Source: Byssovorax sp. (GTDB taxonomy: Bacteria; Myxococcota_A; Polyangia; Polyangiales; Polyangiaceae). From it: a stretch of DNA of 64,000 bases. The DNA lies in contig JANYGI010000045.1 of NCBI GenBank assembly GCA_025362495.1, positions 1 through 64,000 on the forward strand, written 5' to 3'. A model generated the notes under the pieces. The model did no database searches and had not been told where the DNA came from. It worked only from the letters and a program-made list of their open reading frames with translations. Position numbers and translations under genes: made by a program. Shown here in pieces: positions 1 through 61,608 of the stretch. Numbering within the stretch: the stretch's first letter is position 1; the number at the start of each line of letters is the position of its first letter.

Positions 1-2
1 CT

Positions 3-2711: not shown

Positions 2712-2721
2712 TAGGTGAGTC

Positions 2722-2991
2722 GTGAAACTTCGCGCGGATGTGTCACGAACAACGGGTGCTGACGTTCGTCGCCGTGCGGGCTACGTCGCAGGGCGCCATG
2801 TGCAGCTTACTCAACTGCCGACGGTGCAGGTTGAGATTACGGAGGGACCGCCGGGGTTCTCCTTGATCCACCTGGACGCGAATGGCGACTGTGTGGGGGA
2901 TACTTGGCATCCGACTTTGGTTGAAGCGATGCGCCAAGCGAAGGTTGAATTCGGTGTCGAGGAATCGGCCTGGGTTTCTATCGGTGAGTGA
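2722..2991 (+). CDS. Probable immunity protein to the RHS toxin tip
   Basis: An 89-residue soluble protein with no signal peptide or membrane segment. It starts with GTG 10 bases after the RHS stop codon, preceded by a purine-rich AGGTGAG stretch, so it is probably translated from the same mRNA. Position and size match the usual toxin-immunity arrangement of RHS loci, where the cognate immunity gene follows the toxin C-terminus directly. The central part (FSLIHLDANGDCVGDTWH followed by an EAMRQAKVEFG helix) has the look of small alpha/beta proteins commonly seen next to polymorphic toxins, but I cannot name an Imm family. The function is inferred from context. Confidence 0.6.
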   Translation: MKLRADVSRTTGADVRRRAGYVAGRHVQLTQLPTVQVEITEGPPGFSLIHLDANGDCVGDTWHPTLVEAMRQAKVEFGVEESAWVSIGE

Positions 2992-3062
2992 ATCCGGTGT
3001 GCGCTCGGGGCATGAGTTGGGGCTTCATGTGTAATTTATTAATAGTCCCTGTGAATGACAGT

Positions 3063-3194
3063 ATGAGCTCAAGGTTAATTCTTGCCTTCGCAGTGACCAA
3101 TTCATTCTCCACAGCTTGTTCCTCGATTGTAGTCAGCGCTGAGCGGACCGATGCTTCCGCAAATGCCCCTGTCCTCGTGAAGGATCCTCTGTGA
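3063..3194 (+). pseudogene. Truncated lipoprotein-like leader fragment, overlapping the next gene start
   Basis: A 43-residue open frame starts at ATG 3063. A basic/hydrophobic N-terminus runs into a lipobox-like S-T-A-C followed by SSIVV. The next gene has the same arrangement (S-A-C-SSIVVVE), so this looks like a partial copy of the neighbouring lipoprotein N-terminus. It ends with TGA overlapping the GTG start of that gene (GTGA at 3191-3194), an arrangement that allows translational coupling. The surrounding 3000-3190 stretch is clearly richer in A and T than the rest of the window. It may be a decayed duplicate left at the boundary of the RHS/immunity module, or a short leader peptide. 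The -3 residue of the lipobox (Ser) is not ideal. Confidence 0.4.
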
Positions 3195-43530: not shown

Positions 43531-44718
43531 TCACGGCGCGGCTGAGGGCGTGCGCGCGGCGGCGCCGGCCACCGGTCCGGGGCTCGCGAGCAGCTCGGCC
43601 GTGACGCGCCCGACCACCTCGGCGCCAGACGGCGTGAAGTGGAGAAAGTCGTAATACGTGCGCGAGGAATCCTCCAGCACCGGCATCAGATCGATCTGAT
43701 CCACGCCCAGATCGGCGGCGATCCGGGCGGCGCGCGCGTCGGCGAGGGCCATCAGCCGCGACGCGAGGGCGGGAGTGCAATAGACGTGCACCTCTTCCTT
43801 GTAGGGCCGCCCGAGGCCGAAATTCCAGAGCATCTTCTCCAGATCCGGTGCGCTGGTGTCGCCGCGCCACGGCTGGCGGACGATGACGACGCGCTTCGCC
43901 TTCGAAGCGCAGAGGGTGACTATCGCGCGCAGCCACTTCTCGAAGCGGTCGAGCATCGGCGTCGGATCGGCGGACTCGTCGATCATCTGCGCGGCCCGCG
44001 CGCGCATGGCGCGGACGCGGTGCAGCCAGTCACCGCTCTTCGGCGTCACCGTCAGCGGCCGGAGCAGGCGCCGCTGCTGCGTCGAGACGAGCTGCCAGAG
44101 CGCGGTCCTTCGCGGGGAGAAGCTCCACGGGCCGTCCGGGTGCTGCTCGAAGATGTTCCCCGCCGGCACCGGGTCTTCACGCAGCGTCGCGGGCATCTTC
44201 TCGCCCAGCCAGCTCACGATGTCGCTCGCGCCGACCATGATCAGGATCGCGTCGAGCCGCTCGTACCGTGGCAGGACGCGCGTCATGAGCTGATGGAGCT
44301 CGTGGCATGGGAGGATCGCGCGGGCGATGTTACCGATGTGGACGCGATCCACGCCGAGCGCGCGCAGGTGCTCCGGCCGGCTGAGGATGCGCTCGGCCAC
44401 GGCGCCCCAGGTCTGCCGTTGATCGAGGTAGTAGCACTCCGCCGCGCTCCCGCCGATGACGAGCGCCCGATAGGCCCTCTCTCCTTTGCGAGGGGGTGGG
44501 CCGCCGCGCTCTCCATCGCAGTTGATCTCGACGTACGAGCTCGCGTCGAGCGCGGGCAAGGCCGATTGATCGATGTCGAGTCGGCGACGAACGTAGGGGC
44601 GATAGCGGTAGCACGCCCCGCCGTCGCGCAGCGCCAGGCGAGCCGCCGCCTCGGCCCCGACCGCGGCTGCGGCGGCGCCGAGCGCGCCGACGAGGGCCCT
44701 TGTGACCCAGCGACTCAC
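43531..44718 (-). CDS. SGNH/GDSL-type hydrolase of the exopolysaccharide locus
   Basis: 395 residues, GTG start overlapping the flippase stop by 4 bases. An N-terminal membrane or signal segment (ALVGALGAAAAAVGAEAAARLAL) precedes the catalytic domain. Block I is VIGGSAAECY, with serine in a GGSA rather than GDS context. Block III is LIMVGASDIVSW (Asp instead of the usual Asn), and the catalytic Asp/His pair is in YYDFLHFTPSGAEVV. Such enzymes commonly act as O-acetyl esterases or transferases on polysaccharides. The coupling to the Wzx gene supports modification of the exported polymer. Confidence 0.78.
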   Translation of the reverse strand: MSRWVTRALVGALGAAAAAVGAEAAARLALRDGGACYRYRPYVRRRLDIDQSALPALDASSYVEINCDGERGGPPPRKGERAYRALVIGGSAAECYYLDQRQTWGAVAERILSRPEHLRALGVDRVHIGNIARAILPCHELHQLMTRVLPRYERLDAILIMVGASDIVSWLGEKMPATLREDPVPAGNIFEQHPDGPWSFSPRRTALWQLVSTQQRRLLRPLTVTPKSGDWLHRVRAMRARAAQMIDESADPTPMLDRFEKWLRAIVTLCASKAKRVVIVRQPWRGDTSAPDLEKMLWNFGLGRPYKEEVHVYCTPALASRLMALADARAARIAADLGVDQIDLMPVLEDSSRTYYDFLHFTPSGAEVVGRVTAELLASPGPVAGAAARTPSAAP

Positions 44719-46277
44719 GACTTCGGGCTCCGGATGCCGGGCAGGAAGCGCCGCACGCGCGCCATGACATCGACGTAGGGATCGTCGCGATAGACGAAGA
44801 AGATCCAGGTCATCGCGAAGACCGTCACCATGCCGAGGCCGGCGAGGAGCAGCGGGACGAACATCGCAGCGCGCGAGGTCGAGCGAGGGAACGCGTTCAG
44901 GCCGAGCTTGAGGCTGAGCAGCAGCAGGGCCGCCGGGGCGACACCGAGGCTCGCGCGGCCCACCACGTAGCGGAGATACTCGCCGACCGACACGTCGAGC
45001 TCACGGCACGTGAAGACCATCACGGCGGCCGCGAAGAGCACGCTCGGGACCGCAGTACCCACGGCCACTCCGACGATCCCGAGCGGCCGCACGAGGGCCA
45101 GGCTCAACGCGAGGTTGGCAGCGCCCATGGCGAGCAGCGCCAGCGCGGGCTTCACCGGCTTGCCCAGGCCCATGAGGATCGGCAGCGCCACGCCCCGCAC
45201 CGGGAGGAAGAACACGAACGAGACCATGAGCACGCGGACGACGGGGCCGGACGCCTGCGCATAGCCCCGTCCCATCCACCATCCGATGAACTCGGGGCCG
45301 AGCACGATGAGATAGATCCCGACGAGCAACGACATCGAATAAGCGATCTTCGACCACTTCAGGTAGACCCGGCGGAGCTCCGCGATGTTGCCTTCGCCCT
45401 CGAGTCGCGCGGCGAGCGGCATGACCACCATTCCAATGCCGAGCACGAGGCCGGTGAGGGGCGGAAAAAACTTGTTTCCGACGTCGAAGAACGTGCCCGC
45501 CGCCGGATCCTGGAAGGCGCCGATCACCAGCGCGTCGGAGCGGAAGGCGAGCTGGCTGCCCACGCTGAGGAGCATGGCAAAGACGCTGAAGCCGAGGATG
45601 GTGCGAACCTGGCTGCGGTCGAAGCGCTGGAGGTTGAAGCGGACGCCCGGACAGCGCCGCCGCACGAAGATCATCCCCCCGGTGAACTCGACGACCATGC
45701 TCCCGAGCTGGATGAGGGCGACGAGGATCAACGACGGATGAACGCGGAGCACGCCGATGGTGAGGGCGAGGCGGAGGAGGAGACTCGCGATCATCACCAC
45801 GTTCTTCGCCGGGAACTCGTGGTAAGCTTCGAGGATGCCAAAAGGCAACTGGGAGACGAACCCCAGGCCGACCTGGAGCACCGCAATCCAGTAGGCGATG
45901 CGGGCCTCGGCGATCCACCGCGGGCCGAGAACCTGCCACGCCGGGGCGCGCAGGTAGACGTGCTCGAAGAAGATGGAGAGCCCCGCTCCGATCACGGTCG
46001 CGCCGGCGCCGAGGAGGATGCAGATCCCAAGGCAGCTCGCGACGGCCTCGTTGACTTTGTCGAGGTCTTTCGAGGCGGCGCTCCGGGCTATGAAGCGCAC
46101 CGAGGCCATGGGCACGCCGAGGATGAGCAGCCCGAGCACGCCTGTCAGCGAGGCGACCGTCAGCCATGCTCCGTTGGCGTCGGGCCCCAGCGCGGTGATC
46201 TGCACCGGGGTGAGCTGGATCATGACGGCAATCTGGATCAGCGCCAGCGCCCAGTTCGATCCAACGTTCTTGAGCAT
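44715..46277 (-). CDS. Polysaccharide flippase, Wzx-type (MOP superfamily)
   Basis: 520 residues with about 12-14 hydrophobic segments spread evenly. It starts LKNVGSNWALALIQIAVMIQL, typical of PST/Wzx transporters, and includes EAYHEFPAKNVVMI and the conserved loop DVGNKFFPPLTG. The family flips undecaprenyl-linked repeat units across the inner membrane in Wzx/Wzy-dependent polysaccharide synthesis. It is the first gene of a minus-strand pair with the SGNH hydrolase and is divergent from the beta-helix gene. No specific sugar can be inferred. Confidence 0.9.
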   Translation of the reverse strand: MLKNVGSNWALALIQIAVMIQLTPVQITALGPDANGAWLTVASLTGVLGLLILGVPMASVRFIARSAASKDLDKVNEAVASCLGICILLGAGATVIGAGLSIFFEHVYLRAPAWQVLGPRWIAEARIAYWIAVLQVGLGFVSQLPFGILEAYHEFPAKNVVMIASLLLRLALTIGVLRVHPSLILVALIQLGSMVVEFTGGMIFVRRRCPGVRFNLQRFDRSQVRTILGFSVFAMLLSVGSQLAFRSDALVIGAFQDPAAGTFFDVGNKFFPPLTGLVLGIGMVVMPLAARLEGEGNIAELRRVYLKWSKIAYSMSLLVGIYLIVLGPEFIGWWMGRGYAQASGPVVRVLMVSFVFFLPVRGVALPILMGLGKPVKPALALLAMGAANLALSLALVRPLGIVGVAVGTAVPSVLFAAAVMVFTCRELDVSVGEYLRYVVGRASLGVAPAALLLLSLKLGLNAFPRSTSRAAMFVPLLLAGLGMVTVFAMTWIFFVYRDDPYVDVMARVRRFLPGIRSPKS

Positions 46278-48075: not shown

Positions 48076-49512
48076 ATGTCCGCCCTGGAGAGCGGTCATC
48101 GTATGTTCGCACTGCTCGGCATCATCGGCCTCATGATCTCGATCTACATGAGGCCCTACGAGTGGAACGCGGATCTCGCGACCCTCCCGTTCCTGCAGGT
48201 GTGCTGCGCCCTGGCGATCGTCGGGCTCGTGATCGACTTCGCGACGCGCCGCACGCTGCTGATCTCCAACCCGATGACGCCGTGGTGCGTCTTCCTCGTG
48301 TTCTGGTGCATCGTCACGCTGGGCCTCGCCGCGCCCGAGCTGGTCGCGTCGAAATCTTCGCCAATCATCATCTCGCTGACGCTCTTCATCCTGATCTCGC
48401 ACGGCGTGCAGACGGTGAAGGCGTTCACCCGGCTCGTGGTCACGATCTTCGCGCTGGGCCTCTTCGTGGCCTATGTCGGCGCTGATCAGGGCCTGAACAA
48501 CTTCGGCTGTCACGTCGTTCCACCCCAGGGCGACACGCGCCGGCCGTTCTTCGACGGGCGCGACTGCCAGGCCACCGAGGAGCTCAAGCAGGAAGACGCC
48601 GTGAGCCTCTGTTACGTTGGTCCCGCCGCCAAGAGCGTCTATTATCGGTGCGAGAAGCCGGGCTATTTCAACACGTCGTCCATCGAAGGGCGGGTCCGTT
48701 ACCTCGGCGTGCTCACCGATCCGAACGAGCTGGCGCTGGCCACCTCGCTCGCCCTGCCGATCGCGTTCGCCTTCTTCGAGATGAAGCGCTCGGCGGCGCG
48801 CCTCCTGCTGCTGCTCTTCGGCGTCGGCCTCGTCGCTCTCGAGGTCGTCTTCACGAAATCGCGCGGAGGACAGATTGTCTTCGCCGTCGTCCTCGGCGCC
48901 TATTTCGTGCGTAAATACGGGATAAAGCGGGGCGCGATCATCGCCGGCGTGATGGCTGTCCCCCTGATCGCGCTCGGTGGCCGCTCGGGGGACGCGGCAG
49001 ATCAATCGGCGCTCGACCGGCTCCACGCGGCCAGCGCGGCGATTCACCTCCTGATCCAGTATCCCATCAAGGGCGCCGGCTATACCCAGTTCACCGAGCA
49101 CCACCCGCTCACCGCGCACAACGCCTACCTGCTCTCGGCCGGCGAGCTCGGGTGGCCCGGGCTGCTCAGCTTCGCGAGCATCGTCTATCTCTGCGCCAAG
49201 ACGACGGTATCGGTGCTGCGCTTCGACTTCGACGAGGACGACCCCGAGAGCGCCAACATCAAGTCGCTGGCGATGGCGATGCTGGCCGTGTTCGCGGGCA
49301 TCGGCATCGGCATCTTCCTGCTCTCGTGGACCTATCACTTCATCCTGTGGATCCACTTCGGCCTGGCCGGCGCGCTCTACTCGGTGATGAAGAAGAAGTA
49401 CCCGCGCTTCCAGGTCCGCTTGAGCATGAAGGAGCTCGGGGCCATCCTCGTCACATGGATCTTCATTCTCGTGGCCTTCACCGCTCACATCATACGCAAA
49501 GGCTGCTGGTGA
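48076..49512 (+). CDS. O-antigen ligase/polymerase family membrane protein (Wzy/WaaL-like)
   Basis: 478 residues, 10-12 membrane helices. The large periplasmic loop holds SIEGRVRYLGVLTDPNELAL, followed by TKSRGGQIVF after helix 8. The family signature is TEHHPLTAHNAYLLSAGELGWPGLL (H-x-x-HN-x-x-L...E-x-G). Wzy_C proteins polymerise lipid-linked repeat units or ligate them to an acceptor. With a Wzx, a PCP and an OPX in the same locus a polymerase role is favoured. ATG 48076 or 48103 may be the start; neither has a clear ribosome-binding site. Confidence 0.88.
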   Translation: MSALESGHRMFALLGIIGLMISIYMRPYEWNADLATLPFLQVCCALAIVGLVIDFATRRTLLISNPMTPWCVFLVFWCIVTLGLAAPELVASKSSPIIISLTLFILISHGVQTVKAFTRLVVTIFALGLFVAYVGADQGLNNFGCHVVPPQGDTRRPFFDGRDCQATEELKQEDAVSLCYVGPAAKSVYYRCEKPGYFNTSSIEGRVRYLGVLTDPNELALATSLALPIAFAFFEMKRSAARLLLLLFGVGLVALEVVFTKSRGGQIVFAVVLGAYFVRKYGIKRGAIIAGVMAVPLIALGGRSGDAADQSALDRLHAASAAIHLLIQYPIKGAGYTQFTEHHPLTAHNAYLLSAGELGWPGLLSFASIVYLCAKTTVSVLRFDFDEDDPESANIKSLAMAMLAVFAGIGIGIFLLSWTYHFILWIHFGLAGALYSVMKKKYPRFQVRLSMKELGAILVTWIFILVAFTAHIIRKGCW

Positions 49513-49629
49513 CTGCCACTCTCGCCGGGAGCCTGGGGCCTTTCGCCGATGCGCGAGCACGGAGCCAGCAGGCGGGCTCGACGAGGTTCACCGACGGCCA
49601 AGTGGCTGGTGTCCTTCGACACCAGCTAC

Positions 49630-50379
49630 CTAGCGACCCAGGCCCAGGAACATCACCATGGGAGTCTTGAGGATCACCTTGAGCTCGGTGCGGAGGAACG
49701 CGGGCAAGCTCTCGAGCGAGGCGGCATAGGCGAGGTCGAAGAGGAGCTTCATCCGCATGTCGTCGGCCTCGGCGCCCTCGGCCTCTTCGAGCTCGAAGGG
49801 GTTGGTGAGCGTCGCGGCGAAGGCGGCAATCTCGCTGTTCTCCGGCGCCTTGCCGGAGTAACCGAGCGAGATCTGCGCGAGCCCGGTGATCCCCGGCTTG
49901 ATGTCGCGCATCCGCTCTTCGAAGAAGGGAATCGCCAGCGCCAGATTGACCAGCAGCTCCGGTCGCTCGGGGCGCGGGCCGACGAGGCTCATCTCGCCGA
50001 CCAGCACGTTCCAGAGCTGGGGTAGCTCATCGAGCCTGGTCTTGCGAAGGAACCTCCCGACGCGGGTCACGCGGGGGTCGTTTTCCTGCGCGAGGATCGC
50101 GCCTGTAAGCCTCTCCGCATCCACTCGCATGGTACGGAATTTGCGCATGTCGAACTCGCGAAATTGCGGTCGAGGAATGCCGTCGATGACCTCCACGCCC
50201 TGGAGCGTCCCGGCCCGACGTTGCTTGTAGAAAATTGGCCCAGGAGATTCGGCGTAAATGGCTGCGCCGATCAATGGATAGAGGGGGAGCGTCACCGCTA
50301 GACCCAGGCCCGAGGCCAGGAGGTCGATGGCGCGCTTGGTCGCACGGACGCCGGGGGTCACGGCATCGTTGTAGCTCAT
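49630..50379 (-). CDS. Initiating sugar-1-phosphate transferase (bacterial sugar transferase family)
   Basis: 249 residues. A single N-terminal hydrophobic hairpin ([27 protein letters not shown]) identifies the small monotopic phosphoglycosyltransferase type rather than the long WbaP type. Signature blocks: [16 protein letters not shown] with [28 protein letters not shown] and [10 protein letters not shown]. The enzyme transfers the first sugar-1-phosphate to undecaprenyl phosphate. The C-terminal ~60 residues lengthen the usual domain slightly. It is divergent from the RsbW-like gene with only 40 bases between the starts, so the two probably share a control region. Confidence 0.92.
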
Positions 50380-50419
50380 TTTCGCCGATTCATGGTAGGG
50401 TTGCCGCCAGGAGGTAGGC

Positions 50420-51043
50420 GTGATTCTGCTGCGCGTTCCGGGGACGCTCGAGTACCGAAATCTCGCGTTACGTGCCGTTTCCGAGGCATGCCGGATCGCT
50501 CAGCACGACGAGTGGGAGGGCGCCTCCCTCGAAGCGCAGACGGTGTCCGCGCTCGGTGAAGCGTTCAACAACATCGCGATCCACAGCTACGCCGGGCGCC
50601 CCGCGGGCGACGTCGTCGTCGAGATCAGCTGGACCCGCGACGAAATCGTCATGCAAATCTCCGACGACGGCCGCAGCTTCGATCCCGAGCTGGTCGAGCT
50701 GCCGGATCTCGACGCGCTGCCCGAGGGCGGCATGGGCTTGTTCATCATCCGCTCGTTCATGGACGAGGTCGAGTACCAGGCGGGGCCGCCGAACGTGCTC
50801 CGCCTCGTGAAGCGACGCGCGGCACGGGCAGAAGGCGAAATCGCTCCGATGTCGACGCGATCGCCAGCCCGCGCGGGCGGGAGCTCGAAGCTCCCTTCAT
50901 CAGGGCGATCTGGCTCGATGCCTCGCGGAAATGCCGACGCCGATCGCGATCGGGATCCTTCGGCGAGCGGCTGGCGAATGTTGGCAGTGGATGCTGGCGC
51001 GGCGACGAGCCTGCGCAAGACGGGGACCGCAAAGCAAAAATGA
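50420..51043 (+). CDS. RsbW-like anti-sigma factor / serine kinase (GHKL ATPase)
   Basis: 207 residues, GTG start. Residues 1-135 form an HATPase_c_2 domain: N box E47-AFNN51-IAIHSY, G1 SDDGRSFDP (82-89) and G2 EGGMGLFIIRSFMDEV (102-117). This is the set seen in SpoIIAB/RsbW kinases, which bind a sigma factor or other target and phosphorylate an antagonist. A ~70-residue Ser/Arg/Gly-rich tail is unusual. Its stop overlaps the STAS antagonist gene by 4 bases (ATGA), the standard RsbV/RsbW pairing in reverse order. A SpoIIE phosphatase is encoded 6.5 kb away in the same locus. Confidence 0.87.
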   Translation: MILLRVPGTLEYRNLALRAVSEACRIAQHDEWEGASLEAQTVSALGEAFNNIAIHSYAGRPAGDVVVEISWTRDEIVMQISDDGRSFDPELVELPDLDALPEGGMGLFIIRSFMDEVEYQAGPPNVLRLVKRRAARAEGEIAPMSTRSPARAGGSSKLPSSGRSGSMPRGNADADRDRDPSASGWRMLAVDAGAATSLRKTGTAKQK

Positions 51044-51339
51044 AACATTCGCGTACCGACAACGGCAACGAGACCGTGCTCACGATCGAAGGGACGCTCG
51101 ACGCGGTGACCGCGCCGGAGCTGAGGAGCGTGGTCGACGATCTCGTCAACGAAAGCCGCAAAGAGGTGACGCTCGATCTCGCTGCGCTGCGCCTGATCGA
51201 CAGCTCCGGTGTCGGCGTGATCGTCTCGTTGTTCAAGCGCGTGCGCGCCAACGGCGGGCAGGTGCGCATCACCGGACTGCGCGATCAGCCGCGCGCGATC
51301 TTCCGCCTGCTGCGCCTCGATCGCGTCTTCCCCGTGTAG
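51040..51339 (+). CDS. STAS-domain anti-sigma factor antagonist (RsbV/SpoIIAA-like)
   Basis: 99 residues, ATG within the stop of the kinase gene. The STAS core shows TVLTIEGTLDAVTAPELR, KEVTLDLAALRLIDSSGVGVIVSL and GQVRITGLRDQPRAIFRLLRL. The D54-S55-S56-G57 loop contains the serine that the partner kinase phosphorylates and the SpoIIE-type phosphatase restores. Dephosphorylated STAS would release the kinase target. The target is not encoded nearby (no sigma factor gene in the window), so it may be a polysaccharide assembly protein, as in the Vibrio Syp system, or a distant sigma factor. Confidence 0.92.
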   Translation: MKHSRTDNGNETVLTIEGTLDAVTAPELRSVVDDLVNESRKEVTLDLAALRLIDSSGVGVIVSLFKRVRANGGQVRITGLRDQPRAIFRLLRLDRVFPV

Positions 51340-51543
51340 CTCGGCGGCGATGTCCCTGTGGGGTCAGCTACCCGGCGCGCATGAGCGGAACTGTAGGCGA
51401 TGGCGCGTCGGGGGTGGCGCGCTCGGCGGCATCAATCTACGATGCGATCCTCCGGGTTCTTCTCCCCTGGGCGTTGAGCGCTTGCGCGCCGCGACGCTGG
51501 TGAAGGCGAGCAGGACCTCTCCGACACCACGACAAACGCGGCC

Positions 51544-53163
51544 ATGGACAAGCACACGAACCTGACGAACGCCGTGGTGACGGCGGTCACGCGCGCCGAC
51601 GGTTTGGGCGGCGTGAAGAAAGCGGCGACCGCGTCGGGGGGCCAGCCGGGACAGCCGCCGGCGCTGCCGAACTTCGCCGTGCTCGCGCGCCGCATCTTCG
51701 GCAACTGGCCGCTCATCGTCGGCGCGCTGGTCATCGGGGCGCCGATCAGCCTGAAGGTCGTCAAGGGGAAGATGCCCGTCTACAAGAGCGAGGGCACGCT
51801 CATCTTCCGCGGCGGGGTCAACGGCGATCCGTCGCTCGAAGCGCTGAAGTCGCTCGGCCAGCGCATGAAGGAGACCTCGCTCGCCACGTCGACGTTGAAG
51901 CGAGTCGTCGACGATCTGCACCTGTCTCGCCACGCCACGGAGACGGGTAATTACGAAGCCATCATCGGGTCGCTGCGCCCCCGGATCGACACCAAGCCGA
52001 AGACCCCGGACACGTTCACGGTGACCTTCGACGACTCATCGCCGGAAGATGCCCAGCGGATCGCGCAGCGGCTCTGCGAGGTGATGATGGAAGAGAACAT
52101 GAAGAGCCGGCAGGACCGCGCGAAGGACTCGATCGACTTCCTCGAGTCCGAGAAAAAGCGCGCGGACGACGATCTCGCCAAGTCCGAGAAGGCGCGCACG
52201 CTCTTCATGTCGCTGCATCCCGAGTTCGCGTCCGACGGCAAGGACGGCACGACGATCCGCGCCGAGCAGAAGGCCGACGCGTCGCAGAGGAAGAAGGCCG
52301 CGGGGAACGCGATGCGCGTGCGGCGAGCCGCGGGAGCGGCGCCCGCGGTGAACGCAGCGGCCACGCGGGGCTTCGGGCCCGCGGCTCCTGCAGCAGCGGG
52401 GGCTCCGGCGGTCGACCCCGTGCTCGTCGCCGCGCGAAACCAGGCCCGCGGCGAGGTCGCGGCGGCGAAGAAGCAGCTCGCCGACAAGTCGGTGAGCCTC
52501 ACCGAGCAGCACCCCGATGTGCGCGCCGCGGCCGCTCGCGTCGCCGCCGCCGAGACGACGCTCGAGCAGGCCGAAGCGGCGATCGCAGCCGCGCAGCAGA
52601 ACGATCCGGCGCCCGCGCCGTCGCCGGTCGCGGCGGCGGCGGTCGCCGATCCCTACGACGATCCCTCGGCGGCGCCCACCGCCGCGCCCGCGCCGGTCGC
52701 GGCCGGCGGCGTGGCCGTCGAAAAGCCGCAGCCCAAGCCGCGCCTCACCGATGACGGCGAGCCGATCGCCGTCGAGATCGAGGCCGAATGGTCGCGGCTG
52801 GTGCGCGACGTCAGCGAGGCGAAGGCCCGGCGCGGCCAGCTCGAAGGGCGCCTGTTCCAGGCCGAGATCGCCGCCAACTCCGAGGTGAGCGGCTACGGAT
52901 CGCAGATGGTGATGCCCGAGCCCGCGACCCGCGGTACGGCGGCCCCGGGGACGAACCCCATGGTGTTACGCGCCGCGGGCATGGGCGCTGCGCTGGTCGT
53001 CGGGCTGCTGCTCGCCGCGCTCCGCGGGATCATCCTCGACGACCGCCTCTTCGACGCGAGCGAGGTCGACGCGCTCGGCCTCGCGCCGCTGCTCGGCTCG
53101 GTTCCCAGGGCCAAGGTCGAGAAAAAGAAGAAGCCCTCGTTGCTCCGGAGGCTCCGTGGTTAG
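51544..53163 (+). CDS. Polysaccharide co-polymerase (Wzz/PCP family)
   Basis: 539 residues. Two membrane segments (about 55-72, NWPLIVGALVIGAPISLKV; and about 475-500, GMGAALVVGLLLAALRGI) flank a long periplasmic region. It begins with the Wzz block YKSEGTLIFRGG and contains a coiled coil interrupted by an Ala/Pro-rich stretch (about 240-410). The end is a short cytoplasmic Lys/Arg-rich tail without a kinase domain. PCP proteins set chain length and link the inner membrane to the OPX channel. The kinase-like partner is encoded separately and overlaps by 8 bases, a split PCP-2 arrangement like those of M. xanthus. Confidence 0.85.
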   Translation: MDKHTNLTNAVVTAVTRADGLGGVKKAATASGGQPGQPPALPNFAVLARRIFGNWPLIVGALVIGAPISLKVVKGKMPVYKSEGTLIFRGGVNGDPSLEALKSLGQRMKETSLATSTLKRVVDDLHLSRHATETGNYEAIIGSLRPRIDTKPKTPDTFTVTFDDSSPEDAQRIAQRLCEVMMEENMKSRQDRAKDSIDFLESEKKRADDDLAKSEKARTLFMSLHPEFASDGKDGTTIRAEQKADASQRKKAAGNAMRVRRAAGAAPAVNAAATRGFGPAAPAAAGAPAVDPVLVAARNQARGEVAAAKKQLADKSVSLTEQHPDVRAAAARVAAAETTLEQAEAAIAAAQQNDPAPAPSPVAAAAVADPYDDPSAAPTAAPAPVAAGGVAVEKPQPKPRLTDDGEPIAVEIEAEWSRLVRDVSEAKARRGQLEGRLFQAEIAANSEVSGYGSQMVMPEPATRGTAAPGTNPMVLRAAGMGAALVVGLLLAALRGIILDDRLFDASEVDALGLAPLLGSVPRAKVEKKKKPSLLRRLRG

Positions 53164-54916
53164 AGCCGCCGGTAGCGGCAATCCGGCTCCGACGTCGTCC
53201 TTCGCCTCGCTCGAACGCACGCTCGAACGCACGGTCGAGACCCTGATGAAGGGTGAGCCTTCGTCGGAGTCCAAGGCGCTGCTGATCGAGGCGCGGAGGC
53301 TGCGGAGCGTCGTCGCCAACTGGCAGTCGATCCCGCCTCCGTCGGACGTCTACGACGAGATGCTCGACCGCGTGCTGCACCTGTCGACGGCGGCCGGCGC
53401 CTCGCTCTACGAGCCCTCGCCCGACTCGCTCCGCACCGAGTTCGATCCGCTGCTGCGCACCGACTATGAGCCGAGCCTCTACGACGACTTCGAGCGCACC
53501 GACGTCCCGCCGATGTCGTACCGGTCGAGCGCCGTTCCGGGGCGCGGCAACGACGACGCCGATGTCCGCGGGGCGACGGTGCCGGTCGCTCACTACGCGA
53601 CGGCGGGCAGCACAGGAAAGCGCGCGGCCGAAGCCGATCCGGTGATCTCGGTCGACGACGACGAGCTCTCCTACGCGGCCGATCCCGGCGGAAGGCATGG
53701 CGCCGACATCGAAGCGCCGCGGCCAGCTCGCCCGCTGCTCGCGTCGAACACGGGGATGCGCCCCGCCGAGCCGCTGCGCTCCAGCGCGGGCATCGCGCCG
53801 CGAGGACGCGCCCTCGGCACGCGCTCCGGGATGCCCGCGTACGCGGCGCCTCGCGCGCCGGTGATGGACGATCCGCCGTCGTACCCGGCCTTCGACTCGC
53901 CGGCCACGTACGCAGCCGACGACGACGACGCGCCCTCGTATCCTTCCTACGAGCTCGAGCCCACGCGACCGGTCCCGGTCGAGGCCACCCGCGCTCGCCA
54001 CAGCGCGCCGCCTCCTGCGACGGCGAACTCGTCCTACCCGACGCACGCGCGCACGCCGTCGCACCCGCCGCCGCGCATGCAATCGTCGCCGCCGCCACGC
54101 ACGCCGTCGTACCCGCCGGCTCGCGCGTCGTCGCCCCCGCCGGCAATGCGCTCGGGGTTCCCCGCGCCGATCACCGGCGATCGCCTGCGAGCGCACGCGC
54201 CGGCCGAGATGGTGATCGATGGCGGCGGAGCGGCCGACGACGCGGAGATCGCGCCGCCCACGTCGGTCACCGTCGTCGCCGTCGCGCTCGGCGAGAAGAT
54301 CGATCCGCACATCGTCCTGCTCTCGGACGCGTACTCCGATCGCGCCGACGCCTACCGCGCGCTCCGCCGCAAGCTCGCCTCGTCGGGGAACCCGCAGGTC
54401 ATCGCCATCACCAGCCCCGACGCCGGCGAGGGCAAGACGACGTGCGCCCTCAACCTCGCGCTCGCGATGCGCGAGACGTCACGCGGCAAGGTGCTCCTGA
54501 TCGAGGCCAACGTGCGATCCCCGTCGATGGCGAAGCTTCTCGGCTTCGAGCCGCCCGAGTGCTTCTGCGATCAGCTCACCGAGCGCAAAGAGGATCCGCG
54601 CCGCGCCTGGATCGCCGTCGAGGCCATGCCCAAGCTCCACATCATGGCCGTCGCCCCGACGACCAAGCGCCCTCCGCAGCTCGATCCGCTCGCGTTCGCC
54701 AGCGGGATGGAGCGGCTCAAACGCGCCGGCTACGAGTACATCCTCATCGACACGCCGCCCGTGCTCGGCACGTTCGAGGTCAACATGATCGCCGACAACG
54801 TCGACGGCGTGCTCTTCACCGCGATCACGATGAAGTCGAAGCGCAGCCACCTGCGCAAGGCGATGGAGCAGATCATGCCCGCTCCAGTCCTTGGCGTGAT
54901 GGTGCTTGATTCCTAG
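53156..54916 (+). CDS. BY-kinase-like ATPase of the exopolysaccharide system with long disordered N-terminus
   Basis: 586 residues, GTG start 8 bases before the PCP stop. Residues ~1-75 are helical; ~90-370 are low-complexity with many Tyr/Pro/Ser/Asp repeats (SYPTHARTPSHPPPR and the like). The C-terminal ~220 residues are a CpsD/CapB-type domain: SRADAYRALR-like RADAYRALRRKL, Walker A A423-GEGKTT429, Walker B ILIDTPPV (Asp532). Walker A' reads LLIEANVRSP, with Glu450 and Asn452 where BY-kinases have Asp-x-Asp. No C-terminal tyrosine cluster is present, although the N-terminal region is Tyr-rich. It may be a phosphorylation-poor regulator of PCP, or use the N-terminal tyrosines. Confidence 0.82.
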   Translation: MVRAAGSGNPAPTSSFASLERTLERTVETLMKGEPSSESKALLIEARRLRSVVANWQSIPPPSDVYDEMLDRVLHLSTAAGASLYEPSPDSLRTEFDPLLRTDYEPSLYDDFERTDVPPMSYRSSAVPGRGNDDADVRGATVPVAHYATAGSTGKRAAEADPVISVDDDELSYAADPGGRHGADIEAPRPARPLLASNTGMRPAEPLRSSAGIAPRGRALGTRSGMPAYAAPRAPVMDDPPSYPAFDSPATYAADDDDAPSYPSYELEPTRPVPVEATRARHSAPPPATANSSYPTHARTPSHPPPRMQSSPPPRTPSYPPARASSPPPAMRSGFPAPITGDRLRAHAPAEMVIDGGGAADDAEIAPPTSVTVVAVALGEKIDPHIVLLSDAYSDRADAYRALRRKLASSGNPQVIAITSPDAGEGKTTCALNLALAMRETSRGKVLLIEANVRSPSMAKLLGFEPPECFCDQLTERKEDPRRAWIAVEAMPKLHIMAVAPTTKRPPQLDPLAFASGMERLKRAGYEYILIDTPPVLGTFEVNMIADNVDGVLFTAITMKSKRSHLRKAMEQIMPAPVLGVMVLDS

Positions 54917-54921
54917 CGGAT

Positions 54922-56034
<1,113 letters not shown>

Positions 56035-56145
56035 GAGTCGAGACTTACCACGATGAGCCCTCGGCGCGCGACGCGGGCGCACACTTCGAGAGGACTCGGG
56101 GGCGGTGCGCGTCCGGGACGCGCCGTGTGGTAGGGTTGAGCCGGA

Positions 56146-57552
56146 ATGCTGGTACGGCGCGTCCTCGGGGGGCTGTCCTTCGCCGCGAGCATCTCGTGGA
56201 GCGGGCTCGCCGGGGCGCAGTACTTCCACGCCGATCCGACGGTGCGCGTCACGGCCGGGTACACGTTCAACCGCATCATCCCCGACGATCCGAGCTTGCC
56301 GCAGGCCGATCAGAGCAGCCCGCTCGTGTCGCTCGCGCCGTCGCTCGCGCTCTCCTACGAGACGCCGCTGGTCACGCACAAGCTCACGCTCGCGGGCACG
56401 CTCGGCCTCCCGCTCTCGAGCGATTTCACCTTCAACGGGCTCCCGCCGAACTACAGCTTTCGCGGCAACTACTCCGGCGTCATCCCGCTCGGGCCGCTCA
56501 CCAAGCTCACCCTCGCGGGCGTGGCGAGCGCCGCGCCCATCAACGGCTACTCGACGCTGCAAGACCCGTCGCTCACGCCGATCGACGCGCCGCCGGCCGA
56601 TCTCTCGTACAACTTCACGCTCAGCGGGACGGCGACGCTCCGGCGCGAGCTGACGGAAGACTCGAGCCTCACGTCGACGAGCAACGTTCACTACACGTTC
56701 CCGTTCAACGTCACCCCGATCCGACCCTCGACGCTGTCGGTGAAGAACTCGCTGGCGCTCACCCGCAAGTGGACGCGCGACACGCTCACGCTCACGGGCT
56801 CGGTGAACGTGACGCGCTTCGGCCCCAGCGAGACGCAGGGCGTGGATCCGCGCGTGCAGGTGATCAACGACCTCGTCCTGATGTGGAAGCGCCCCTTCAC
56901 GGAGTCGCTCACAGGGACGCTCCGCCTCGGCGTGAGCCAGACGATCAGCCCGCAGTCGACCGTCGGGCAGGTCTGGGCGCCCACCGGCTCGGCGACGCTG
57001 CTCTACAACCTCGAACCCGCGTCGATCACGCTCATGTACTCGTACGCCTCGGTCGTCGACGTGTACACGGCGACGACGAACCTCAACAACCAGGCCTCGC
57101 TGCGTGTGGTCATGCCGCTGTCCACGACGGGGCTCGCGCTGTCCGGCTCGGGCGGCGTCGTGCACACCGTGCCGATCGGCGACGTCGGCGTCGGGCTGAA
57201 CTCGGTCACGAGCGACGTGGGCCTCACCTATACGCCGCTCGACATCCCCAAGTTCTCGGTGAGCTTGCGCGGCGTCTACGCGCATCAGGTCGCCATCGAT
57301 AACCCGCTCACCGGCATCACCCGCGTCGGCGCGATCTTCAACGTGGCGTTTTCGTACCCGAACACCGCGAGCGTCGATGTCGCGTTGCGCGCGACGCCGT
57401 CGTTCATCCCGACCACGAATTTCGAGGGCGACGTGGCCCTCGGCCAGGAAGTCCCGGCGACCGATTTCGCGCCGCGAGCGGACGGCCCTGCCGACGTCGC
57501 GCCGCCGGCAGCGCCGCCCGAGCCAGCGCCCCCGCCCGCGGCTGCGCCCTAG
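56146..57552 (+). CDS. Putative outer-membrane beta-barrel protein of the EPS locus
   Basis: 468 residues with a signal peptide (GGLSFAASISWSGLAGA-Q). From about 25 to 425 the protein is almost entirely alternating-hydrophobicity strands of 9-12 residues (LSYNFTLSGTATLRREL, DTLTLTGSVNVTRFG, ASITLMYSYASVVDVY, FSVSLRGVYAHQVA). This is the pattern of a 16-18 strand barrel with short turns. A Pro/Ala-rich tail ends it. In M. xanthus Wzx/Wzy pathways, short OPX proteins lacking the Wza outer-membrane helix pair with separate beta-barrels (WzpX/S/B); this gene, with the short OPX at 61.5 kb, fits that scheme. Confidence 0.68.
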   Translation: MLVRRVLGGLSFAASISWSGLAGAQYFHADPTVRVTAGYTFNRIIPDDPSLPQADQSSPLVSLAPSLALSYETPLVTHKLTLAGTLGLPLSSDFTFNGLPPNYSFRGNYSGVIPLGPLTKLTLAGVASAAPINGYSTLQDPSLTPIDAPPADLSYNFTLSGTATLRRELTEDSSLTSTSNVHYTFPFNVTPIRPSTLSVKNSLALTRKWTRDTLTLTGSVNVTRFGPSETQGVDPRVQVINDLVLMWKRPFTESLTGTLRLGVSQTISPQSTVGQVWAPTGSATLLYNLEPASITLMYSYASVVDVYTATTNLNNQASLRVVMPLSTTGLALSGSGGVVHTVPIGDVGVGLNSVTSDVGLTYTPLDIPKFSVSLRGVYAHQVAIDNPLTGITRVGAIFNVAFSYPNTASVDVALRATPSFIPTTNFEGDVALGQEVPATDFAPRADGPADVAPPAAPPEPAPPPAAAP

Positions 57553-57568
57553 CGATCGCGCCGCGGCG

Positions 57569-59341
57569 TCAGCGCCGACGAACGAGCAGGAACGCGCGAT
57601 CGTCCTCGGGGAGCTGATCGCCGCGGAACGCTTCGAGGAGCTGGCGCAGGCCCACCGAGATCGCGCTCACGCCTCGCGGACCGTCTTTCATGCAGATGCG
57701 CAGGAACCCTTCGCCGAGGCGCTCTTGCCCGAGCATGTCTTTCGAGGTGTTGCGCAGCTCGGTCAGGCCGTCGGTGTAGAGCAGCAGCACGTCGCCCGGG
57801 GCCAGCGTGCCGCGCTGCGACTCCATCGTCGTGATCGCGACGCCGAGCGCCGGGTTCACCGCGGACTGCAGGAACCGCAGCGCGCCCGAGCTGCTCACAG
57901 CGATCGGTGGCGGGTGCCCGGCGTTCACGCACTCCGTCTCGCCCGTCACCGGATCGACGGCGATCGCCACCATCGTCACGAACGAGTGCGCGGGGAGCCA
58001 CTCGCACAGGTGCTTGTTCACCCGCTCCATCAGCTCGGGGAGGCTGCGGCCGCCGTCGGTCGTGGCGCGGACCATGGTGTGCACGCTCGACGTCACCAGC
58101 GCGGCCTGGAGGCCCTTGCCGCACACGTCGGCCACGGCGAAGAGCATCCGCCCGTCGGGCATCGGCACCACGTCGACGTAATCGCCGCCGACCCACTTGC
58201 AGGGCTCGAAGGCGATCGCGACGTCGAACCCCGGGAAATCGTGCTTTTTCGGCACGAGGCCGCGCTGGATCTGGCGGGCCGTGTCGAGCTCGCGCTCGAT
58301 CGCCGCGTGGGCCTGCGCGTGCCGCCGGGCCATCCACGCGGACTCGCTCTGCTGGTACACCTCGGCCGCGAGGGCGATCAGGCTCAGCCACTCGACGCTG
58401 CCGAGGTCGGGCGGCAGCGTGACGTACAGGACGTCCATCTCGTCGTCCTGGAGCGCCAGCGGGCAGGCCACGACCCAGAGGGCCATCACGTCGCGCGACA
58501 TCGTCAGCTCGACCGAGGGCGGGCCATTGGGGCCGGGGCTCGCGAGGTTGCCCGCGAGCACGGGCTCGCGCGTCTCCTGCAGCTTGCCGAGCACGCGACG
58601 CGAGATGTACGGGTTCCCGTCGGCCTGGTGCGACGACGGCCGGAAGGGCCGTGACAGCATCGTCGGCGTCCCCGCGCGGATGCGCAGCGCCACGGCGAGG
58701 CTGGCCCGAAACTCTTTGCCGATCATCAGGTGACAGAGCTGCGCGAGCCGCTCCTGCGGATCCTCGACGCTGATCAGCCGGCGGCTGAACTCCATCAGGT
58801 TGCGCAGGTGCTCCGCGGCGATCCGCGGAGGATCGAAGTCCATCAACGTGCGGATCGCGGTGGGCTTGTCGTCGTCGAGCGCGATGGCGCCGCGGGGAGA
58901 GCGGTTCTCGACCTTGGGCTCGAGGAAGAAGCTCACCATGAAGTCGCCGATGGCGATCTTGTCCGACGGCTGAAGCACCTTCTCGGTGACGGGCTCGTCG
59001 TTGACGAGGGTGCCGTTGGTGCTCCCGAGATCGCGGATCCACCAGCGACCGAAGGGATCGCAGAACATCTCGGCGTGGCGGCGCGAGACGGTGTGGTGGT
59101 CGAGGAGGAGCTGAACGCCCGGGACGCGCCCGATCACCACGTGCGATTCGGACAGGAGGCGACGCGAGACGCTCCCGCCGTTGAGCCGGATCTCGAGGTA
59201 CCCCTTCCACGGCGAGCTCGAAGGCACGGGCGTCCCCGCCGAATCCGACTCGGTCGATACGCGGCTTCCCGCAGTCGGCGTCAGGGCGGAATCACCCGGA
59301 AGCCGGCCTGAAGTCGCGGGAATGGTGCGCGTGCTCGACAT
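57569..59341 (-). CDS. FHA-GAF-SpoIIE (PP2C) serine phosphatase, RsbU-like
   Basis: 590 residues. After a Ser/Thr-rich N-terminus, an FHA domain spans ~48-140 with GR, S-R-R-H (86-89) and STNG (107-110), the phosphothreonine-binding residues. A GAF-like sensory region covers ~175-335. A helical signalling segment (ARQIQRGLVP at ~355-364) leads to the PP2C_SIG domain with GGD (385-387), ADVCGKG (404-410), NAGHPP and YTDGLTE, so the metal-binding aspartates are all present. It should dephosphorylate a STAS antagonist such as the one at 51.0 kb. The FHA domain implies further input from a Ser/Thr kinase. Convergent with the beta-barrel gene. Confidence 0.92.
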   Translation of the reverse strand: MSSTRTIPATSGRLPGDSALTPTAGSRVSTESDSAGTPVPSSSPWKGYLEIRLNGGSVSRRLLSESHVVIGRVPGVQLLLDHHTVSRRHAEMFCDPFGRWWIRDLGSTNGTLVNDEPVTEKVLQPSDKIAIGDFMVSFFLEPKVENRSPRGAIALDDDKPTAIRTLMDFDPPRIAAEHLRNLMEFSRRLISVEDPQERLAQLCHLMIGKEFRASLAVALRIRAGTPTMLSRPFRPSSHQADGNPYISRRVLGKLQETREPVLAGNLASPGPNGPPSVELTMSRDVMALWVVACPLALQDDEMDVLYVTLPPDLGSVEWLSLIALAAEVYQQSESAWMARRHAQAHAAIERELDTARQIQRGLVPKKHDFPGFDVAIAFEPCKWVGGDYVDVVPMPDGRMLFAVADVCGKGLQAALVTSSVHTMVRATTDGGRSLPELMERVNKHLCEWLPAHSFVTMVAIAVDPVTGETECVNAGHPPPIAVSSSGALRFLQSAVNPALGVAITTMESQRGTLAPGDVLLLYTDGLTELRNTSKDMLGQERLGEGFLRICMKDGPRGVSAISVGLRQLLEAFRGDQLPEDDRAFLLVRRR

Positions 59342-59568: not shown

Positions 59569-60897
59569 TCAAGCCTTCACGACATTCGACCGCGGCTCGC
59601 GATAGATGCCCCGCGTGTCGATCACGAGCGAGGCGTGCGCGGCCACGAGCGCGTAGTCGACGGCCGTGTGATCGGTGACGATCACCACCGCGTCCTGCGC
59701 GGCGAGCAGCTCCGGAGTCAGCGCTTGCGACGCCATCTCGAGCAGGTGCGGCCAGTTGCGCATCCGCGGCGCCTTCGGCACGTGGGGATCGTGGTAGCCG
59801 ATGTTCGCGCCGAGCTTCTGGATCAGCTCGATCAGCTCGAACGCGGGGCTCTCGCGCGGATCGTCGATGTCTTTCTTGTAGGCCAGGCCGAGGATCAGCA
59901 CCTTCGATCCCTTCACGGCCTTGCCGCGATCGTTGAGCGCGAGCAGCAGCTTCTGCACGACGAAGTGCGGCATCTCGACGTTCACCTCGCCCGCGAGCTC
60001 GATGAACTTCGTCGAGCGCCCGAACTCGCGCGCCTTCCACGCGAGGTAGAACGGATCGAGCGGGATGCAGTGCCCGCCCCAGCCCGGGCCCGGGTTGAAG
60101 CGCATGAAGCCAAAAGGCTTCGTGGAGGCCGCGTCGAGCACCTCCCACACGTCGATCCCCATCGCGTCGTAGACGACCTTGAGCTCGTTCACGAGGGCGA
60201 TGTTGACGGCGCGGAAGATGTTCTCGGTGAGCTTCGCGGCCTCGGCGGCGCGCGCCGACGAGACGCGCACCGTGCTGCTGATCGCCTGCTGGTAGAGGGC
60301 CTCGGCGAGATCGCCCGAGTCCTGATCGAAGCCGCCGACGACCTTCGGAATGTTGGCCGTCTTGTAGGTCGGGTTGCCCGGATCCTCGCGCTCGGGCGAG
60401 AACGCCAGGTAGAAATCCTTGCCGGCGACGAGACCCGTCTTCTCGAGGATCCCGCGCACCAGCTCGTCGGTCGTGCCGGGGTACGTCGTCGACTCGAGCA
60501 CGACGAGCTGCCCCTTGCGCAGGCGCTCTTTCACGGCGCGCGTCGTGTCGACGACGTAGCTCATGTCGGGCTCGCGCTGCGGCGTCAGCGGCGTGGGCAC
60601 GCAGATCAAGATCGCGTCGGCCTCGGTCAGGCGCGCGAAGTCGGTCGTCGCCTTCAGCGTGCCGGCCTTCGCCGCGGCGGCCACGCGTGCGCCGTCGAGG
60701 TGCTTGATGTAGCTCTCGCCGTTGTCGAGCGCGGTGACCTTCTTCGGATCGACGTCGAAGCCGAGGACCTTGAAGCCCTTCTCGGCGAAGGTGAGCCCGA
60801 GGGGCAGGCCGACATAGCCGAGCCCGATGATCCCGATGACCGCCTCTTTCGCGTGGATTCGAGAGAGAAAGCGGGCCTTGTCTGCGTCGTTCGACAT
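59569..60897 (-). CDS. UDP-N-acetyl-hexosamine (UDP-GlcNAc/ManNAc) dehydrogenase, WbpA/WecC-type
   Basis: 442 residues. NAD-binding GLGYVGLPLG (26-35), VPTPL (100-104), STTYPGTTDEL (136-146), catalytic region FNPGPGWGGHCIPLDPF with nucleophile Cys277, Lys222 in AAKLTEN, and the C-terminal UDP-binding domain (ILGLAYKKDIDDPRESP). The PGxGxGGHCIPxDP form and length indicate the family that oxidises UDP-N-acetylated hexosamines to uronates. This supplies an acidic amino sugar to the EPS; WbpA- and WecC-type substrates cannot be separated by eye. Followed by 227 bases of non-coding sequence and the phosphatase gene; 41 bases downstream of the OPX gene on the same strand. Confidence 0.9.
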   Translation of the reverse strand: MSNDADKARFLSRIHAKEAVIGIIGLGYVGLPLGLTFAEKGFKVLGFDVDPKKVTALDNGESYIKHLDGARVAAAAKAGTLKATTDFARLTEADAILICVPTPLTPQREPDMSYVVDTTRAVKERLRKGQLVVLESTTYPGTTDELVRGILEKTGLVAGKDFYLAFSPEREDPGNPTYKTANIPKVVGGFDQDSGDLAEALYQQAISSTVRVSSARAAEAAKLTENIFRAVNIALVNELKVVYDAMGIDVWEVLDAASTKPFGFMRFNPGPGWGGHCIPLDPFYLAWKAREFGRSTKFIELAGEVNVEMPHFVVQKLLLALNDRGKAVKGSKVLILGLAYKKDIDDPRESPAFELIELIQKLGANIGYHDPHVPKAPRMRNWPHLLEMASQALTPELLAAQDAVVIVTDHTAVDYALVAAHASLVIDTRGIYREPRSNVVKA

Positions 60898-60938: not shown

Positions 60939-61538
60939 TCACTGCACGACCACGCTGTCGCCGGGCACGATCGCGACGTCCATGTCGGGGCGCTTGCCCC
61001 CCATGATCGCCTTGAAGCTGACCGGGATCTCGCGGATGTGGCCTTCCTTGTCGGCGCGGTAGATCACGATCTGATCGCCGGCGAACTTGTTGGGACCGCC
61101 GGCCATCGCCACCGCCTCGGAGATGGTGACGTAGTACTTCTGCGAGAACGATCCCGACTTGTTGACCTGGCCCGACACGATGAACCGGTAACTGTTGAAC
61201 CCGGCGACCGTGACATTCACGGTGGCCTCTTTCACGAACTCGCTGAAGCGCTTTTTCAGGTCTTCGCGCACCTGGCTCGGCGTCTTGCCCGCGACGACCA
61301 CGTCGCCCACGAGGGGGATCGTCACGACGCCGTCGGGCCGCACGGTGGCGCCCCCGAGCGACAGATCCGGCGATTTGTAGACCTGGATCGAGATCACGTC
61401 CGTCACCCCGATCACGTACTCGTGCTTCCGGGGGTCGTACTCTTTTCCGTAGGCGTACGTCTCGTAGATGCTCGGTCCGCACGCCGAGAGCGCGAGCGAG
61501 CCAAGCAAAACGAGCAACGCCGGAACGACCTTTTTCAC
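60939..61538 (-). CDS. Polysaccharide export lipoprotein (OPX, short Wza-like)
   Basis: 199 residues from GTG 61538 (GGGAG about 7 bases upstream). The lipobox is L-S-A-C (about residue 20). Then the polysaccharide export domain follows (YVIGVTDVISIQVYKSPDLS, VRPDGVVTIPLVGDVVVAG, the helix TPSQVREDLKKRFSEFV) and a SLBB domain (FIVSGQVNKSGSF, ISEAVAMAGGPNKFAG). The protein ends just after SLBB (VPGDSVVVQ), so it lacks the C-terminal amphipathic helix that forms the Wza outer-membrane pore. It would form the periplasmic ring of the exporter. Same strand and spacing as the UDP-sugar dehydrogenase gene suggest an operon. Confidence 0.92.
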   Translation of the reverse strand: MKKVVPALLVLLGSLALSACGPSIYETYAYGKEYDPRKHEYVIGVTDVISIQVYKSPDLSLGGATVRPDGVVTIPLVGDVVVAGKTPSQVREDLKKRFSEFVKEATVNVTVAGFNSYRFIVSGQVNKSGSFSQKYYVTISEAVAMAGGPNKFAGDQIVIYRADKEGHIREIPVSFKAIMGGKRPDMDVAIVPGDSVVVQ

Positions 61539-61608
61539 CTTGAGCTCCCGCCTGTTGGCGCGACGAGCCGCCGTCGCGCGCGCAGCATACACCACCGCCG
61601 CGCGCCGC

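What the first reader, a model, noticed from the sequence alone, without database searches (positions are those of the whole stretch)
49630..59341. Partner-switching module (RsbW kinase, STAS, FHA-GAF-SpoIIE phosphatase) inside an exopolysaccharide locus
All three parts of a phospho-switch are present and complete by motif: kinase N/G1/G2 boxes, the DSSG serine of STAS, and PP2C metal aspartates. They sit between the initiating transferase, PCP, barrel and sugar dehydrogenase genes, and no sigma factor gene is in the window. In Vibrio fischeri the Syp polysaccharide is controlled by a STAS protein (SypA) and a kinase/phosphatase (SypE). This locus may be an independently assembled version with extra FHA input from Ser/Thr kinases. 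The 40-base divergent gap between the initiating transferase and the kinase gene also invites shared transcriptional control.
Basis: partly seen in the sequence, partly recalled or inferred. Interest (0 to 1): 0.7.

Follow-up and report, generated by a model that had tools for sequence, protein, structure and literature searches.

The report
Phospho-switch built into polysaccharide gene locus
A three-protein on/off switch (a kinase, its small target protein and a phosphatase) sits inside the genes with which Sorangium-type myxobacteria make a cell-surface polysaccharide; because it has stayed with one particular polysaccharide-starting enzyme across the whole group, it most likely controls polysaccharide production rather than a general stress response.

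Summary
Window 50420-51043 (+) is an RsbW-type kinase, 51040-51339 (+) a single-domain STAS protein with Ser56 in DSSG, and 57569-59341 (-) an FHA-GAF-PP2C (SpoIIE) phosphatase. They lie among the initiating sugar-phosphate transferase (PGT), PCP, BY-kinase-like, barrel, sugar dehydrogenase and Wza genes. In this 10.8-Mb genome they are by far the strongest kinase and SpoIIE matches and the best STAS match. The arrangement is conserved: of 68 related Myxococcota loci, 57 have the kinase within 1 kb of the STAS gene and 51 have a PGT within 10 kb (44 divergent). In 144 genomes of the order, strong kinase orthologues (24) occur only with one PGT subtype (25), including one genus where the two are unlinked. 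No SigB/F/G-type sigma factor reaches its cut-off in 21 carriers. The nearest STAS relatives outside the phylum sit mostly in syp-type polysaccharide loci (Vibrio SypA), but the kinase is not closest to SypE. I read it as a Syp-like but separately assembled EPS switch with split enzymes: a new variant of a known kind. That it acts after transcription, with STAS as output and the PGT as first candidate target, is inferred. No phosphorylation or target was tested.

The parts
49630..50379 (-). initiating phosphoglycosyl transferase (PGT, Bac_transf), long-match subtype (690-nt Pfam match against 567 nt for the genome's other PGT)
   Evidence: PF02397 3.3e-49; one of only two PGTs in the genome
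50380..50419 (.). 40-base divergent gap between PGT and kinase genes; holds TGGTAGGGT at 50393-50401 (extended -10-like) and an AGGAGG-type ribosome site
   Evidence: sequence; element conserved in Sorangium and in L075; 2 copies in 64 kb against 0.04 expected
50420..51043 (+). RsbW/SpoIIAB-type HATPase serine kinase, 207 aa, GTG start
   Evidence: PF13581 5.4e-22; nearest solved structures RsbW and SpoIIAB; N, G1 and G2 boxes
51040..51339 (+). single-domain STAS protein, 99 aa, predicted phospho-acceptor Ser56 (DSSG)
   Evidence: PF01740 1.5e-20, TIGR00377 above cut-off; nearest solved structures SpoIIAA and RsbV
51544..53163 (+). PCP (polysaccharide co-polymerase / chain-length determinant)
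   Evidence: TIGR03007 9.8e-22, below the equivalog cut-off
53156..54916 (+). BY-kinase-like ATPase
   Evidence: TIGR03018 4.1e-25, AAA_31 1.9e-8
54922..56034 (-). conserved protein without Pfam or NCBIfam match; polysaccharide-deacetylase-like fold; likely EPS modification
56146..57552 (+). predicted beta-barrel protein; TGGTAGGGT at 56128-56136 just upstream
57569..59341 (-). FHA-GAF-PP2C (SpoIIE-type) serine phosphatase, 590 aa
   Evidence: PF00498 1.5e-16, PF07228 1.1e-43; GAF in 15 of 20 orthologues; model: FHA like GarA (Z 18), PP2C like RsbU of Rv1364c (Z 27.8)
59569..60897 (-). nucleotide-sugar (UDP-sugar) dehydrogenase
   Evidence: TIGR03026 3.8e-129, above cut-off
60939..61595 (-). 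Wza-type export lipoprotein
   Evidence: PF02563 2e-23, TIGR03027 3.4e-34
48076..49512 (+). Wzy-type polymerase / O-antigen ligase family
   Evidence: PF04932 9.4e-11
44715..46277 (-). Wzx-type flippase
   Evidence: PF01943 9.4e-13

Best explanation
The three proteins form a phospho-switch dedicated to the polysaccharide made by this locus. The kinase phosphorylates STAS Ser56 and the FHA-GAF-PP2C protein removes the phosphate when its sensory domains are engaged. STAS in one state, most likely unphosphorylated as for SypA, is the output and acts on the EPS machinery of the same locus rather than through a SigB/F/G-type sigma factor; the initiating transferase is the first candidate target. 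Shown here: presence and motifs, conservation as a set, physical and phyletic tie to one PGT subtype, and no SigB/F/G factor above cut-off. Inferred: the phosphorylation itself, its direction, post-transcriptional action and the target.
For: All three strongest genome matches lie within 9 kb. Kinase within 10 kb of a PGT in 17 of 21 genomes that hold 1-4 PGTs each, 0.13 expected. 68 Myxococcota loci: kinase within 1 kb of STAS in 57, PGT within 10 kb in 51 (44 divergent), at least one EPS gene in 53, PP2C in 44. Phyletic: strong kinase in 24 of 144 genomes, PGT subtype in 25, overlap 24; the extra genome is 64% complete. The tie survives rearrangement: kinase and STAS are 4.6 to about 22 kb apart but in one locus in G060, G057 and G131, and in genus g52 the trio is contiguous away from the PGT but both are kept. 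TIGR02980 over cut-off in 0 of 21. So ce26 has 94 STAS matches but only one matches this profile strongly (1.5e-44, next 2.5e-5). STAS is more conserved than its kinase in 97% of locus pairs, which fits STAS carrying a further conserved partner. STAS relatives outside the phylum lie mostly in polysaccharide loci. SypA acts below transcription and is the downstream partner of SypE (PMC10120452).
Against: No biochemical or expression data. Linkage does not give the target. Other sigma-70 family proteins exist in the genome (13 sub-threshold matches), so another sigma factor could be the partner. In g52, G129 and a few other genomes the trio is not within 10 kb of EPS genes. Many loci are close relatives, so counts are not independent.
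Confidence: 0.6

Rival explanations
1. Classical anti-sigma switch: the kinase sequesters an unlinked sigma factor of another class that transcribes the EPS locus, and STAS releases it.
For: Kinase and STAS are closest in solved structures to RsbW/SpoIIAB and SpoIIAA/RsbV. A conserved TGGTAGGGT element lies before the kinase and barrel genes, so a common sigma factor is possible.
Against: No SigB/F/G factor over cut-off in 21 carriers; no sigma gene among window ORFs scanned; STAS rather than the kinase is the more conserved partner; the kinase stays with a PGT, not with a sigma gene.
Confidence: 0.2
2. STAS (or the kinase) acts on another EPS component, such as the BY-kinase-like ATPase, PCP or Wza, and the PGT adjacency reflects shared transcription only.
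For: In syp loci of Vibrio STAS is followed by Wza and BY-kinase genes and the PGT is not close; PCP, BYK or Wza are present in most Myxococcota loci.
Against: The BYK distance matrix fits STAS poorly (r 0.34) against 0.65 for PGT and 0.76 for the kinase; the PGT is the most frequent close neighbour. Both are weak, correlative points.
Confidence: 0.15
3. Passenger module: a general signalling trio that happens to be carried with the EPS locus and controls something else.
For: In g52, G129 and some other loci it sits without EPS genes within 10 kb.
Against: 17 of 21 genomes linked against 0.13 expected; 24 of 24 co-occurrence with the PGT subtype; relatives in other phyla are also in polysaccharide loci.
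Confidence: 0.05

Closest known systems
SypA/SypE of the Vibrio fischeri syp polysaccharide locus
   Same: Single-domain STAS with the phospho-Ser at position 56 of DSSG; kinase and PP2C activities in the same polysaccharide locus; no sigma factor known; STAS families group in the tree (95/74).
   Different: Here kinase and phosphatase are separate proteins, the phosphatase has FHA and GAF instead of a receiver domain, and the kinase belongs to another clade; the PGT is the immediate neighbour.
RsbU/RsbV/RsbW and SpoIIE/SpoIIAA/SpoIIAB sigma-factor switches
   Same: Same three enzyme/substrate folds and catalytic motifs.
   Different: No SigB/F/G-type sigma factor gene nearby or over cut-off in the genome; fixed partner is an EPS locus.
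HmpU/HmpV/HmpW of Nostoc punctiforme (hormogonium motility and polysaccharide)
   Same: STAS-kinase-phosphatase trio affecting motility and polysaccharide, with an unknown STAS target (PMC8256260).
   Different: No sequence comparison with HmpUVW was made here; different phylum and locus.
SiaA/SiaB/SiaC/SiaD of Pseudomonas aeruginosa
   Same: PP2C and kinase control biofilm; the SiaA PP2C is a close structural match (Z 27.1).
   Different: SiaC is not a STAS protein and output is a diguanylate cyclase (own knowledge; not tested); none was seen in this locus.

Membership tests
Partner-switching module (RsbU/V/W type) | RsbW-type HATPase kinase with N, G1 and G2 boxes | tested here: met
   PF13581 above cut-off; motifs
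Partner-switching module (RsbU/V/W type) | single-domain STAS with phospho-acceptor Ser | tested here: met
   PF01740, TIGR00377; DSSG
Partner-switching module (RsbU/V/W type) | PP2C/SpoIIE phosphatase with metal-binding Asp | tested here: met
   PF07228; GGDY, DVCGKG, TDGLTE, EDDR; fold Z 27.8 to RsbU
Partner-switching module (RsbU/V/W type) | phosphorylation of the STAS Ser by this kinase and removal by this phosphatase | not testable with these tools
   needs assay
SigB/SigF anti-sigma system | cognate SigB/F/G-type sigma factor | tested here: not met
   TIGR02980 over cut-off in 0 of 21 carrier genomes; other sigma classes not excluded
Syp-type EPS switch (SypA/SypE) | STAS related to SypA, encoded in a polysaccharide locus | tested here: met
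   tree 95/74, moderate, 89 columns, sampling by similarity to the query; locus content
Syp-type EPS switch (SypA/SypE) | one kinase-REC-PP2C protein (SypE) | tested here: not met
   two separate proteins here; SypE-like fusions with REC seen in L138 and L270; kinase not sister to SypE
Syp-type EPS switch (SypA/SypE) | unphosphorylated STAS is the active output, acting below transcription | not testable with these tools
   known for SypA (PMC10120452); inferred here
RsbRST stressosome module | RsbR/RsbS/RsbT genes together | tested here: not met
   one STAS and one kinase here; a cluster of that look is elsewhere, C143:10-2475

The most novel reading that the evidence does not exclude
The STAS protein binds the initiating phosphoglycosyl transferase directly and gates the first step of polysaccharide synthesis by its Ser56 phosphorylation state; the same logic would answer what SypA does in Vibrio.
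Probability: 0.2. Interest if true: 0.85.

Novelty: new variant of a known kind. Interest (0 to 1): 0.58.

Why it matters
The downstream target of SypA is stated as unknown in 2023 and 2024 papers (PMC10120452, PMC11112999). Here is a second, phylum-wide set of EPS-locus switches whose rearrangements narrow the candidates: across Myxococcota the one recurrent close neighbour is a specific PGT subtype, and in several gammaproteobacterial loci and Plesiomonas a PGT gene also directly precedes the STAS gene. It turns an open question into a short list for two-hybrid or co-purification. It also shows how a sigma-factor switch module can be reused to control an assembly line, in bacteria whose multicellular life depends on surface polysaccharide.

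Tried and rejected
Promoter/terminator scan of 49500-51700 found nothing above shuffles. Kinase phylogeny was tried as support for common descent with SypE and went against it. The phyletic search with the phosphatase could not be run (error, then cap). GAF was not found by Pfam in the window protein, and the structure search of the whole model hardly tested residues 141-360; the GAF call rests on orthologues and topology. The plasmid search for STAS-PGT fusions found none; Wang et al. 2007 on Anabaena all4160, described in PMC8256260 as a glycosyltransferase with an N-terminal STAS domain, is not held, so the kind of glycosyltransferase was not checked. Considered and rejected: chance adjacency (17 of 21 against 0.13 expected). 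Distance-matrix correlations were computed but treated as weak, because shared descent inflates them.

Full report
OBSERVATION. The window is G000:C190:1-64000 of a 10.84-Mb assembly; its nearest named relatives at this locus are Sorangium cellulosum (Polyangiales). The catalytic motifs are intact. The predicted phospho-acceptor is Ser56, the same number as in SypA. No sigma factor domain was found among about 40 window ORFs scanned.

THE THREE BELONG TOGETHER. In the whole genome the kinase (E 1.5e-21, next 2e-9), the phosphatase (4.5e-44, next 1.5e-5) and the best STAS (1.2e-19) are all within 9 kb. A second set at C143:10-2475, with two kinases, two STAS and a weak SpoIIE match, looks like an RsbRST-type cluster and is separate. 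In family f6 the trio is contiguous kinase-STAS-phosphatase, which supports the pairing that in the window is only inferred from being in one locus.

LINK TO POLYSACCHARIDE. A search with the kinase alone found it in 34 of 144 genomes of the order, 24 of them strongly. In 21 of these genomes, which hold 1-4 PGTs each, the kinase lies within 10 kb of a PGT in 17 (0.13 expected). In each of the 17 it is the long-match PGT (606-699 nt against 486-600 for the others; the 606-nt case, G140, matches the subtype at 1e-103). Searching the order with this PGT gave 25 of 144 genomes, including all 24 strong-kinase genomes; the remaining one is 64% complete. Physical linkage explains much of this, but in genus g52 the trio and the PGT lie on different contigs and both are kept. 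By contrast the neighbouring deacetylase-like protein occurs in 43 of 144, so the kinase does not simply track every gene of the locus. Over 68 Myxococcota loci found through STAS or kinase, 57 have the kinase within 1 kb of STAS, 51 a PGT within 10 kb (44 in opposite orientation to STAS, 7 same), 53 at least one EPS gene and 44 a PP2C; of 45 loci with at least 5 kb on each side the numbers are 38, 34, 36 and 33. The loci are related, and some contigs are short, so these are counts, not independent trials. In G060, G057 and G131 kinase and STAS have moved apart but remain in one locus.

SIGMA FACTOR. The SigB/F/G model TIGR02980 exceeds its cut-off in none of 21 carrier genomes, while one control genome passes. 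Weaker matches are other sigma-70 proteins, so a partner of another class is not excluded.

RELATIVES. One genome-wide scan with the STAS profile returned 49 loci from Myxococcota or lineages grouping with them, then mostly Vibrio and other gamma- and alphaproteobacteria. The latter lie in syp-type loci: STAS followed by Wza and BY-kinase genes, six of them with a detected kinase-PP2C fusion like SypE; REC was confirmed in L138 and L270. The scan requires the peptide DSSGV[GA][AVI]IV, so the conserved serine in these hits is not independent evidence. In each of these Vibrio genomes the syp STAS is the best match to the profile. In a tree with paralogues from the same genomes and solved SpoIIAA/RsbV, the myxobacterial and syp STAS group together with UFBoot 95 and SH-aLRT 74 on 89 columns: moderate support. 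The kinase tree gives the myxobacterial kinases as one clade (99/98) without the SypE kinases. So the STAS may share a polysaccharide-linked ancestor with SypA while the enzymes that act on it differ. A tblastn of the STAS against plasmids gave 13 records; of the 8 records annotated or scanned here, 7 carry glycosyltransferase or other polysaccharide genes beside the STAS (Plesiomonas, with a PGT directly upstream of STAS; Deinococcus; Rhodobacteraceae; Paracoccus; Nostoc; Vibrio; Salmonella) and one Streptomyces does not. The second Plesiomonas record was not opened.

MECHANISM. Shown: the parts, their conservation as a set, and their tie to a PGT subtype. From established knowledge of RsbW/RsbV/RsbU: kinase phosphorylates STAS, PP2C dephosphorylates it. 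Inferred: that STAS is the output (it is more conserved than the kinase in 97% of locus pairs, and SypA is the downstream partner of SypE), that it acts after transcription, and that the PGT is the first candidate. The review PMC8256260 mentions Anabaena all4160, a glycosyltransferase with an N-terminal STAS domain needed for heterocyst envelope polysaccharide; this is a lead for direct STAS-transferase control, not a test. Sensory input: FHA (phosphothreonine reader fold, Z 18 to GarA) and GAF domains on the phosphatase; the FHA is missing from the phosphatase found in several relatives, so inputs vary.

KNOWN OR NEW. The kind is known (SypA/SypE; possibly HmpUVW). I found no paper in the held library describing this myxobacterial arrangement; PMC2887360 lists the S. 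cellulosum FHA-SpoIIE protein sce0876 without mention of an EPS locus. Only open-licence papers are held. I rate it a new variant of a known kind, interest 0.58.

Noticed in passing
50393-50401 and 56128-56136 (+): TGGTAGGGT occurs exactly twice in 64 kb (0.04 expected), before the kinase gene and 9 bases before the barrel gene ATG; the first copy is conserved in Sorangium and L075 while its flanks differ. The motif was chosen after seeing it, so the statistic is only indicative.
   Followed up: partly
54922-56034 (-): Protein family without Pfam or NCBIfam match, 69% mean column identity over 15 loci, in 43 of 144 genomes of the order; confident model (pLDDT 88.5) resembles polysaccharide deacetylases (Z 17.4 to 3rxz, 15.9 to insect chitin deacetylase).
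   Followed up: yes
G000:C143:10-2475 (L226): Second partner-switch cluster in the same genome with two RsbW-like kinases, two STAS and a weak SpoIIE match, of RsbRST type.
   Followed up: no
L268, L269, L271, L272, L273, L274: STAS with kinase and SpoIIE-type genes next to GT2-type or group 1 glycosyltransferases, in some with DUF3131, acyltransferase or OpgC genes, on plasmids of Deinococcus, Rhodobacteraceae, Nostoc, Paracoccus, Vibrio and Salmonella: perhaps a second class of polysaccharide-linked switch.
   Followed up: partly
L083, L084, L085 (about 9.7-12.4 kb): In one genus the intact kinase-STAS-phosphatase operon has moved away from EPS genes, next to an HTH/IrrE-like protein and histidine biosynthesis genes, yet the PGT subtype is kept elsewhere in the genome.
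   Followed up: partly
L087 genome (So ce26): Sorangium cellulosum So ce26 has 94 STAS matches and So ceGT47 has 62, a very large expansion; only one in each is of the EPS type.
   Followed up: no
1-4000: G+C drops to 0.604 against about 0.69 elsewhere, at an ORF with an RHS repeat (81-2711): possible mobile or polymorphic-toxin-like region.
   Followed up: no
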